Origin: an uncultured Lentibacter sp.
GTDB lineage: Bacteria; Pseudomonadota; Alphaproteobacteria; Rhodobacterales; Rhodobacteraceae
Direction of reading: 5' to 3'
DNA length: 64,000 nucleotides
Assembly: GCA_947497495.1 (NCBI GenBank)
Contig: CANMGT010000012.1
Location: 1 to 64,000 of the forward strand
Each line of letters starts with the position of its first letter. Position 1 is the stretch's first letter. Positions 39,931 through 41,254 of this stretch are shown here, piece after piece. Under the pieces are notes generated by a model. The model was given only the letters and a program-made list of their open reading frames with translations. It had not been told where the DNA came from and searched no databases. The position numbers and the translations under genes are program-made.

Positions 39931-40016
39931 TGAAATCTTTGGCTCCGGCGGTAGGTTTCGTCGTGCATCTATTATTCTATAAAAAACAATACCTTACATA
40001 TATTTTGAAATTCAAG

Positions 40017-40036
40017 TGTTGCGGGATTTGTTGCGG
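40017..40036 (+). repeat. TGTTGCGGGATTTGTTGCGG, left copy of 20-bp direct repeat
   Basis: 19/20 identical to 41081-41100; contains two TGTTGCGG units. Confidence 0.85.
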
Positions 40037-40050
40037 TCAAATCGACCGTA

Positions 40051-40980
40051 TCAGTCGAGACCGCACGAGGTTGAAAAGCGCTTTCCGAATTCGGTAAACT
40101 GTATTTCAAGATTGAGACGAGGGCCAAACATATGTTGTGAGAACAGCCTTTCAGGTGGTGATGCGTTTCGCTCGGCAATTTGCTCCATACCTTTCAGCTT
40201 TTCGTGAAGTTCCGCGAACGCCCGAAGTATGTCTTCATCATCTTGAATGCGTGGGGCGAAGCTAGACGTATGCTGACGATGGTGAATAGGGGTTCTTTCA
40301 ATAATGCCCTGTCGCATCAGATTGTCAGCCCAACTAGGGGATTCAATATCTGCCAAGCCGTAGTCGTTTGCTCTATCTTTTATCGCAGTGATGGCCTCAT
40401 GTTGCATTGCAGAGTTTTCTTGCTGGAATGCGTCCATTTGTTCTTTTTCATCGGGGCTGATTTTTGCGTAGTCCCCCGGCGTAAAATACTTTGCGCGAGC
40501 CTTTAGGTTGCGTTCAGTTTGCTGAATAAAAGCGAGCAAGTCGATCACTTTGGCGTCCATCGGTGAAAGGCTTTCGAGAATACTAATGAATGGGCGCTCG
40601 GCGGTCACGTCCGAGTTTGGCTCAAGTGCCTTTGCAAACAACCCAGCCCATAAATCCCGCACGTTTGCGTCATCAGTCAATGACATGCCATTCAACAGAA
40701 GGTGCAGCTCTTCCTCTTTAGGTGGCGTAATGTCTTTCATATCGATGCCGTTCGCATCTAGTTTCTTTCGCACTTCATCCATGGCTAGCTGGGCATTCAA
40801 TTCCCGCTTGCGCTTTACTCGGTCTCCAAGAATGCCAATACTGGCTGCTAAAAGGTTACCAGCTTCTTTGGCTGGTTTCTTGAGTAGACCACGGATCACA
40901 TCACCCAGTGCTGCGTCGATTTCTTTGCCAATGCTTACGTCTAGTGAGACCTTAGGTTTTTCCTTACCGTCGTTTGCCAT
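40051..40980 (-). CDS. Abi-alpha/DUF4393-like protein (putative abortive-infection-type protein)
   Basis: KEAGNLLAASIGILGDRVKRKRELNAQLAMDEVRKKLDANGIDMKDITPPKEEELHLLLNGMSLTDDANVRDLWAGLFAKALEPN resembles the DUF4393 core; family assignment by eye. Confidence 0.55.
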   Translation of the reverse strand: MANDGKEKPKVSLDVSIGKEIDAALGDVIRGLLKKPAKEAGNLLAASIGILGDRVKRKRELNAQLAMDEVRKKLDANGIDMKDITPPKEEELHLLLNGMSLTDDANVRDLWAGLFAKALEPNSDVTAERPFISILESLSPMDAKVIDLLAFIQQTERNLKARAKYFTPGDYAKISPDEKEQMDAFQQENSAMQHEAITAIKDRANDYGLADIESPSWADNLMRQGIIERTPIHHRQHTSSFAPRIQDDEDILRAFAELHEKLKGMEQIAERNASPPERLFSQHMFGPRLNLEIQFTEFGKRFSTSCGLD

Positions 40981-41080
40981 TCGTGCCTCTCAAAATCACC
41001 TCTACCTATCATCATGCCATGCGATCTTGCAGTTGCAAGCCAACTCAGTGCTTTGCCATCAACAACAATTGATAAGTAAA

Positions 41081-41100
41081 TGTTGCGGGGTTTGTTGCGG
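41081..41100 (+). repeat. TGTTGCGGGGTTTGTTGCGG, right copy of 20-bp direct repeat
   Basis: 19/20 identical to 40017-40036; inverted CCGCAACA unit at 41114-41121. Confidence 0.85.
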
Positions 41101-41140
41101 GATAAGGGATACTCCGCAACATTGAATATGCGAAGATACA

Positions 41141-41178
41141 AAAAAGTCCTTTAAGTTCAATAACTTAAAGGACTTTTT
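41141..41178. terminator. Bidirectional terminator downstream of tRNA-Asn
   Basis: 17-bp perfect stem AAAAAGTCCTTTAAGTT / AACTTAAAGGACTTTTT with 4-nt loop. Confidence 0.88.
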
Positions 41179-41179
41179 A

Positions 41180-41254
41180 TGGCTCCGGCGGTAGGGATCG
41201 AACCTACGACAAATTGATTAACAGTCAACTGCTCTACCGCTGAGCTACGCCGGA
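41180..41254 (-). tRNA. tRNA-Asn(GTT), CCA encoded
   Basis: TCCGGCGTAGCTCAGCGGTAGAGCAGTTGACTGTTAATCAATTTGTCGTAGGTTCGATCCCTACCGCCGGAGCCA on minus strand. Confidence 0.95.

What the first reader, a model, noticed from the sequence alone, without database searches (positions are those of the whole stretch)
39940..41195. Integrase-less mini-island at tRNA-Asn carrying a single Abi-alpha-like gene
Seen directly: the 3' end of tRNA-Asn including CCA (TGGCTCCGGCGGTAGG, 41180-41195) is repeated exactly at 39940-39955. The ~1.24 kb between them is AT-richer than its neighbours and holds one ORF (40051-40980, minus). A duplicated tRNA 3' end is the classic footprint of tyrosine-recombinase integration, but there is no integrase, excisionase or replication gene inside. 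The cargo resembles the DUF4393 'Abi-alpha' group. Inference: a non-autonomous defence cassette mobilised in trans, or the minimal remnant of a larger island.
Basis: partly seen in the sequence, partly recalled or inferred. Interest (0 to 1): 0.85.

Follow-up and report, generated by a model that had tools for sequence, protein, structure and literature searches.

The report
Integrase-less single-gene phage-att defence cassette
A lone anti-phage gene sits in a 1.2-kb piece of DNA bounded by exactly the attachment signals that a family of marine prophages uses to enter tRNA genes, but without any integrase; a second such piece with a different defence gene exists in another genus, which suggests a way for single immunity genes to move by borrowing phage enzymes.

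Summary
The last 16 bp of tRNA-Asn (41180-41195) recur exactly at 39940-39955, bounding 1,240 bp of AT-richer DNA with one ORF (40051-40980), an Abi-alpha protein (PF14337, E=1e-20). A congener, G004, has the empty site. The same motif flanks the attP core of a clade of DUF6538-type tyrosine integrases in Rhodobacteraceae prophages, in an uncultured phage with a tRNA-Asn core, and in roseophage R4C. The far-arm-to-core spacing (-81/-69) is identical to the nucleotide in two of these prophages. Neither this genome nor any searched congener carries a close relative of that integrase. A second integrase-less mini-island (1,212 bp, tRNA-Gln, same arms, one PADLOC PDC-S42 gene) is present in Pukyongiella litopenaei. 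Relatives of the Abi-alpha gene sit at tRNA-Asn in two further genomes beside arm repeats of a different phage integrase type. Best reading: a non-autonomous, phage-att-bounded defence cassette, competent for mobilisation in trans. Actual movement is not shown, and a deletion remnant of a prophage or island remains the main rival. This is a new variant of the CIME/tRNA-island kind.

The parts
39956..41195 (.). The inserted unit: 1,240 bp between the two copies of the tRNA-Asn 3' end (one copy counted)
   Evidence: Exact 16-bp repeat at both ends; absent from congener G004, whose tRNA-Asn runs directly into the sequence found here left of 39940; GC 46.2% vs 57.5%
41180..41254 (-). tRNA-Asn(GTT) gene, integration target, kept intact
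   Evidence: ARAGORN, Rfam RF00005 70.9 bits
41180..41195 (-). Core att copy inside the tRNA 3' end (tRNA-proximal, 'near' end)
   Evidence: Exact repeat
39940..39955 (-). Core att copy at the 'far' end
   Evidence: Exact repeat; followed outward by the chromosomal sequence that abuts tRNA-Asn in G004
41081..41100 (+). Near arm-type site TGTTGCGGGGTTTGTTGCGG (two 12-bp-spaced half-sites, 79 and 91 nt inside the core)
   Evidence: same motif beside phage and prophage integrases
40017..40036 (+). Far arm-type site TGTTGCGGGATTTGTTGCGG (half-sites at -81 and -69 from the core)
   Evidence: identical offsets in the G083 prophage and in L116, one nt less in L114
41114..41121 (-). Additional single half-site TGTTGCGG in the opposite orientation, 58 nt inside the near core
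   Evidence: part of inverted repeat I3
40051..40980 (-). Single cargo gene: 309-aa Abi-alpha family protein (PF14337; PADLOC candidate PDC-S47, weak match)
   Evidence: 117 homologues; stop codon 14 bp from the far arm
41141..41178 (.). Island-borne intrinsic-terminator-like hairpin directly 3' of the tRNA, replacing the tRNA's own terminator
   Evidence: 17-bp perfect stem, z = -6.9; phages L115 and R4C have a hairpin at the same place in attP
39904..39931 (.). Chromosomal hairpin outside the island: the presumed original tRNA-Asn terminator, now displaced by 1.24 kb
   Evidence: z = -5.5; lies directly behind tRNA-Asn in G004

Best explanation
The element is a non-autonomous integrative cassette. 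It consists of the two ends of a phage-type attP (16-bp tRNA-Asn core, arm-type integrase sites on both sides, a replacement terminator) with one abortive-infection gene between them. It entered tRNA-Asn by site-specific recombination carried out in trans by a tyrosine integrase of the DUF6538-type clade found in Rhodobacteraceae prophages and islands. The island's copy of the core restored the tRNA 3' end, and its hairpin replaced the tRNA terminator. It can in principle be excised and reintegrated when a helper prophage of that clade is present. The Abi-alpha protein is expected to abort infection by other phages, as shown for AbiAlpha of Enterococcus. Shown: insertion at the tRNA, empty site in a sister species, att and arm anatomy identical to integrase-bearing elements, absence of a cognate integrase in this genome, one parallel cassette with other cargo. 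Inferred: that a helper integrase acts in trans, that it still can, and that the protein defends this host.
For: Empty site: G004 tRNA-Asn runs straight into the sequence that here lies left of 39940. Absent from all 7 congeners. The arm motif is found exactly in only 5 of 397 family genomes. In G083 both ends of a 41.2-kb prophage (terminase, portal, tape measure) at tRNA-Gln carry it, beside its integrase. It flanks the attP core of viral contig L115, whose core is CCTACCGTCGGAGCCA (tRNA-Asn, 1 mismatch) and whose integrase is 58% identical to G083's. It flanks the attP-like region of roseophage R4C, integrase 56% identical. Far-arm offset -81/-69 is identical in window, G083 and L116. Arm sequences co-vary with the integrase (TGTTGATG in G304, TGTTGAGG in G335). 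A second integrase-less cassette: P. litopenaei (G263), 1,212 bp at tRNA-Gln, same near arm, half of the far arm, one ORF = PDC-S42 E=1.6e-108. Both cassettes have similar dimensions (199/193 nt before the ORF, 95/86 nt after it) and 2 half-sites 77-79 nt from the near core, against 3 half-sites at 100-112 in integrase-bearing phages. AbiAlpha causes abortive infection in E. faecalis (PMC6356687).
Against: No excision, circular form or transfer has been observed. Neither host genome with a cassette has a relative of the G083 integrase in the searches made (G263 is not among the 140 matches), so each is at present stranded. Only two cassettes with these arms are known, and the far arm of the second is half lost. 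A prophage that lost everything but one end-proximal gene would look much the same. Excision normally also needs a directionality factor, which was not looked for. Integration sites of tyrosine-integrase elements are known to shed their integrase (CIMEs, PMC5704250), so trans entry is not required.
Confidence: 0.58

Rival explanations
1. Minimal remnant: a full prophage or genomic island with its own integrase entered tRNA-Asn, and a deletion then removed everything between the near arm and the promoter of an end-proximal Abi-alpha gene. The two att ends survived because they flank a useful gene. It is no longer mobile, or is only cis-mobilizable.
For: CIMEs arise this way (PMC5704250). In phages of this clade the last gene also ends close to the far arm (L114 stop codon next to the arm; R4C gene 23 ends about 23 nt before it), as here (14 bp). 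The region towards the far end of the G083 prophage carries a large protein read as SIR2-like by eye only (PHROGs gives an unnamed family). Congener G006 has a 607-aa ORF resembling a DUF6538-type integrase right behind tRNA-Asn, and G222 shows tandem accretion at tRNA-Asn.
Against: No phage or island gene fragment is left. The near arm differs from integrase-bearing relatives in spacing and half-site number. The same outcome occurs twice with different cargo, different tRNA and nearly equal size. The Abi-alpha gene was not found in any phage record, and its two viral-contig relatives are only 39-44% identical and show no such arms nearby.
Confidence: 0.35
2. The flanking repeats mark an old insertion that now spreads only by homologous recombination or transformation of the tRNA-Asn region between strains, not by site-specific recombination.
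For: tRNA-Asn flanks are conserved enough for homologous exchange. In Nitratireductor only the 3' half of a tRNA-Asn accompanies the gene, away from an intact tRNA-Asn.
Against: Does not explain arm sites at phage spacing on both sides, nor a different arm type at the same tRNA in G034.
Confidence: 0.06
3. A vertically inherited locus with chance repeats.
For: The 16-bp repeat alone, allowing 3 mismatches, is not extreme.
Against: Empty site in G004 and absence in all congeners; arm pair with no match in 100 shuffles; GC drop.
Confidence: 0.01

Closest known systems
CIME (cis-mobilizable element), as reviewed in PMC5704250; Dehalococcoides ssrA islands without integration module (PMC3146451)
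   Same: No integration or transfer genes, retains attL/attR at a tRNA or tmRNA gene, thought to be mobilised by other elements' enzymes.
   Different: Described as decayed ICEs/IMEs and often in accretion with one. Here the att anatomy belongs to a prophage/island integrase clade, nothing is in tandem, the unit is only 1.24 kb with one gene, and a second one of the same design carries another defence gene.
Prophages and islands of the DUF6538-type integrase clade (G083 prophage, phage contig L115, roseophage vB_DshS-R4C, G335 18.9-kb island)
   Same: Same arm motif or a variant of it, same order arm - core - hairpin - arm, same far-arm spacing, tRNA 3' end as core.
   Different: They encode the integrase beside the near arm and 19-41 kb of other genes; their near arm has three half-sites at 100-112 nt in G083, L115 and R4C.
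AbiAlpha / DUF4393 (PF14337) of Enterococcus faecalis V583 prophage 6 (PMC6356687)
   Same: Same Pfam family, single gene, prophage-associated.
   Different: Distant subfamily; there the gene lies inside a complete prophage; activity in this host not tested.
Phage satellites (PICI, P4-like, PLE)
   Same: Small, att-bounded, carry anti-phage genes, depend on a helper phage.
   Different: Satellites of 7-20 kb encode their own integrase and regulatory/replication genes (definition as in PMC13376191); none is present here.
Integron gene cassettes
   Same: One gene plus recombination sites, mobilised by an integrase in trans.
   Different: No attC, no IntI platform; two phage-type att ends and a tRNA target instead.

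Membership tests
tRNA-targeting tyrosine-recombinase integrated element | Direct repeat of the tRNA 3' end at both boundaries | tested here: met
tRNA-targeting tyrosine-recombinase integrated element | Empty site in relatives | tested here: met
   G004:
tRNA-targeting tyrosine-recombinase integrated element | Own integrase inside | tested here: not met
   Only one substantial ORF, not an integrase
Attachment-site family of the DUF6538-type integrase clade | Arm-type repeats at both ends, same sequence and spacing as integrase-bearing members | tested here: met
   (far arm exact; near arm 2 half-sites and about 20-35 nt closer)
CIME | Neither integration nor transfer genes, attL and attR retained | tested here: met
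   recombination activity of the ends not testable here
CIME | Derived from an ICE or IME / in accretion with one | tested here: not met
   No conjugation gene or second element next to it; arms match phage and island integrases
Phage satellite (PICI/P4/PLE) | Own integrase, replication/regulation genes, helper-packaging functions | tested here: not met
   Single ORF only
Abi-alpha (PF14337/DUF4393) | Profile match over the curated cut-off | tested here: met
   75 bits vs 29, E=1.1e-20
Abi-alpha (PF14337/DUF4393) | Abortive-infection phenotype | not testable with these tools
   Shown only for the E. faecalis member (PMC6356687)
PADLOC PDC-S47 | Match to the PADLOC model | tested here: inconclusive
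   E=3e-8, 31.7 bits, no curated cut-off given

The most novel reading that the evidence does not exclude
Rhodobacteraceae harbour a class of one-gene 'att cassettes': about 1.2-kb units made of phage attP ends around a single defence gene, with their own near-arm layout, that are cut and pasted between tRNA genes by whatever prophage of the matching integrase clade is present. This would be an integron-like traffic in single immunity genes that parasitises phage integrases.
Probability: 0.4. Interest if true: 0.87.

Novelty: new variant of a known kind. Interest (0 to 1): 0.7.

Why it matters
How lone defence genes travel between bacteria is largely unexplained: most hypotheses need a whole prophage, satellite or plasmid. 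Here a single gene is bounded by a complete phage attachment apparatus, the helper enzyme can be named to the clade, and a second example with other cargo exists. That makes trans-mobilisation of immunity genes by the enzymes of the phages themselves directly testable with three cloned pieces (integrase, attP from these ends, tRNA attB). It also gives a search rule, paired arm motifs at fixed distance from a duplicated tRNA end, for finding more such units that standard mobile-element finders miss because they look for an integrase.

Tried and rejected
(1) Larger element of the same att elsewhere in the own genome: no other exact core or arm; own integrases are XerC/D-like proteins, two short ones and two others, none matching the G083 type in the family search. 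(2) Plasmid or phage carriage of the Abi-alpha gene: no match in 72,556 plasmids or 50,697 phage records. (3) Arms around the other Abi-alpha relatives: none of the TGTTGCGG type in G034, G276, Nitratireductor, Pseudorhodobacter, Mf 1.05b.01 or L063; only G034 and Nitratireductor showed arm-like repeats, of another type. (4) A degenerate arm pattern over 395 genomes gave mostly chance-like hits without tRNA. (5) Fold search of the Abi-alpha model (pLDDT 80.5) gave no useful match: mostly helical; PDB none at E<=0.001, viral library one weak uncharacterised protein. (6) Literature search for PDC-S42/S47 found nothing.

Full report
WHAT WAS CLAIMED AND WHETHER IT IS THERE. The claimed features are real. 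TGGCTCCGGCGGTAGG stands exactly at 39940-39955 and 41180-41195; the second copy is the 3' end with CCA of tRNA-Asn(GTT), 41180-41254 minus. There is no further exact copy in the genome. The 1,240 bp between are 46.2% GC against 57.5% for the window and hold one substantial ORF, 40051-40980 minus, 309 aa. The protein matches Pfam PF14337 Abi_alpha with E=1.1e-20, 75 bits against a cut-off of 29.

EMPTY SITE. Of seven other genomes of the genus, none has DNA matching the insert. In G004 the tRNA-Asn gene, identical to this one over all 75 nt, runs directly into AAGATTTC and a hairpin. In the window the same sequence lies just outside the far repeat at 39904-39939. Joining the two flanks reproduces the G004 arrangement. 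The element brings its own hairpin (41141-41178, z=-6.9) that takes the place of the displaced chromosomal one (39904-39931, z=-5.5). So this is a clean site-specific insertion that restores the tRNA and gives it a new terminator-like hairpin. Four other congeners shown have a different hairpin directly behind tRNA-Asn, and a fifth (G006) has a 607-aa ORF there. That ORF resembles a DUF6538-type integrase by sequence inspection only; it was not run through Pfam.

Inside each end lies a 20-bp direct repeat, TGTTGCGGG[A/G]TTTGTTGCGG, at 40017-40036 and 41081-41100. It occurs nowhere else exactly in the genome and never in 100 shuffles of the window. It is built of half-sites spaced 12 bp. The exact motif occurs in only 5 of 397 family genomes. 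In G083 it lies at both ends of a 41.2-kb element at tRNA-Gln, flanked by the tRNA 3' end as a direct repeat, with a tyrosine integrase (weak matches to DUF6538 and Phage_integrase) beside the near arm. Terminase, portal and tape-measure genes make it a prophage. In the viral collection the motif is in five contigs. L115 contains an attP with core CCTACCGTCGGAGCCA, the tRNA-Asn end with one mismatch, and an integrase 58% identical to G083's. The cultured roseophage vB_DshS-R4C has a 56% identical integrase and the same arm - hairpin - triple-arm arrangement, with a core that I read by eye as a tRNA 3' end. Relatives with other arms (TGTTGATG in G304, TGTTGAGG in G335) sit at tRNA-Gln and tRNA-Arg, so arms co-vary with the integrase, as expected of arm-type binding sites. 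Far-arm half-sites lie at -81/-69 from the core in the window, G083 and L116, and at -80/-68 in L114. The window's ends are therefore ends of this attachment-site family. That conclusion I hold at about 0.95.

NO HELPER AT HOME. The genome-wide search with the G083 integrase found no match in the window's genome. Congeners G004 and G006 have distant members (29-36%), others weaker or none. The cassette is at present alone.

A SECOND CASSETTE. G263 (Pukyongiella litopenaei by the source name of its protein) has, at tRNA-Gln, a 1,212-bp insert of the same plan: core, near arm at +77/+89, one 305-aa ORF, half a far arm at -68, and the core again with one mismatch. Its ORF is PADLOC PDC-S42, E=1.6e-108; PDC stands for phage defence candidate (usage in PMC11514479). 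Dimensions are close: 199 and 193 nt before the ORF, 95 and 86 after it. Both have two half-sites at 77-79 nt at the near end, whereas G083, L115 and R4C have three at 100-112. This is a small sample, but it argues that the cassettes are not fresh deletion products of those phages.

THE ABI-ALPHA LINEAGE AND tRNA GENES. Close relatives (63%) sit behind tRNA-Asn in G034 and behind a tRNA-Asn 3' half in Nitratireductor; another (61%) lies next to tRNA-Ser in Maritimibacter. G034 and Nitratireductor lack the TGTTGCGG arms but carry TAGTAAGCACATAGTAAGCA about 83 bp from the core start. Nine viral contigs have that motif form; five of them have the tRNA-Asn core 80-185 bp away, start to start, and three of those have an integrase with the Pfam Arm-DNA-bind_3 domain, one just below its cut-off. 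The same gene family has thus been found beside the attachment sites of two different tRNA-Asn phage integrases. I found no far end in G034 or Nitratireductor, so whether those are cassettes or remnants is open.

MECHANISM. Most likely (0.58) the unit is a non-autonomous cassette whose ends are substrates for a prophage- or island-borne integrase of this clade in trans. G335 shows that the clade also drives a non-phage 18.9-kb island. The main rival (0.35) is a deletion remnant of a prophage or island whose end-proximal gene was kept. In phages of the clade the last gene also ends close to the far arm, which fits that origin. The two are not exclusive: a remnant with intact ends is cis-mobilizable. 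The protein probably aborts phage infection: AbiAlpha of E. faecalis prophage 6, the founding DUF4393 member, causes premature lysis of infected cells and blocks phage production (PMC6356687). The AlphaFold model is mostly helical and gave no informative structural match, so the molecular action is unknown.

PLACE AMONG KNOWN THINGS. It meets the wording of a CIME (att sites kept, no integration or transfer genes; PMC5704250), and integrase-less islands at a shared att are known in Dehalococcoides (PMC3146451). It differs in phage-type arms, single-gene size and recurrence with different defence cargo. It fails the defining features of phage satellites (own integrase) and of integron cassettes. 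I found no paper describing such units in the held library. Verdict: new variant of a known kind, interest 0.7, higher if trans movement were shown.

Noticed in passing
L082:8608-9835 (G263, Pukyongiella litopenaei): Second integrase-less mini-island: tRNA-Gln, same arm motif, single PDC-S42 gene, 1,212 bp.
   Followed up: partly
L053:7921-9080 (G034) and L058:9800-10971 (Nitratireductor): 63% Abi-alpha relatives directly behind tRNA-Asn or a tRNA-Asn 3' half, with arm-like repeats TAGTAAGCACATAGTAAGCA that also occur about 81 bp from a tRNA-Asn core in viral contigs L173, L176 and L179.
   Followed up: partly
L054:7965-9148 (G276, Maritimibacter sp. 55A14): 61% Abi-alpha relative convergent with and 155 bp from tRNA-Ser(CGA); contig ends in what looks like an IS, so the far end cannot be seen.
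   Followed up: no
G000:C3:189874-190503 (L120:1306-2148): The window's own genome has a second, unrelated-looking PF14337 gene (E=5.8e-39; PDC-S47 E=5e-43) next to a topoisomerase-like gene.
   Followed up: no
L188 (G335:C1:2285531-2304477): 18.9-kb non-phage island at tRNA-Arg(CCG) with the same integrase clade, arms TGTTGAGGGATTTGTTGAGG at both ends, and genes that by eye look like a type I secretion ABC transporter and membrane-fusion protein.
   Followed up: partly
L190:14942-15016 and L080:9447-9588 (G222): Likely tandem accretion: tRNA-Asn, about 14.3 kb, a second core, hairpin and arm of the same motif, then a transposase-like ORF.
   Followed up: partly
L042:15590-17413 (G006): Congener with a 607-aa ORF resembling a DUF6538-type integrase directly behind the same tRNA-Asn: another kind of element at the same site.
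   Followed up: no
L079:6819-12154 (G083 prophage): Prophage of the helper clade carries a 409-aa and a 1266-aa ORF towards its far end that look PLD-like and SIR2-like by eye, possible defence cargo.
   Followed up: no
L060:1869-1888 and 3043-3062 (Pseudorhodobacter aquimaris): Another Abi-alpha relative is bracketed by two quasi-palindromic 20-nt copies (CCAAAAACGGTCGTTTTTGG / CCAAAAACGCTCCTTTTTGG) 1,174 bp apart; nature unknown.
   Followed up: no
G000:C7:47762 and G000:C2:159801 (L011, L012): Two near-identical short (about 230 aa) tyrosine recombinases in the own genome, not related to the arm-site integrase.
   Followed up: no
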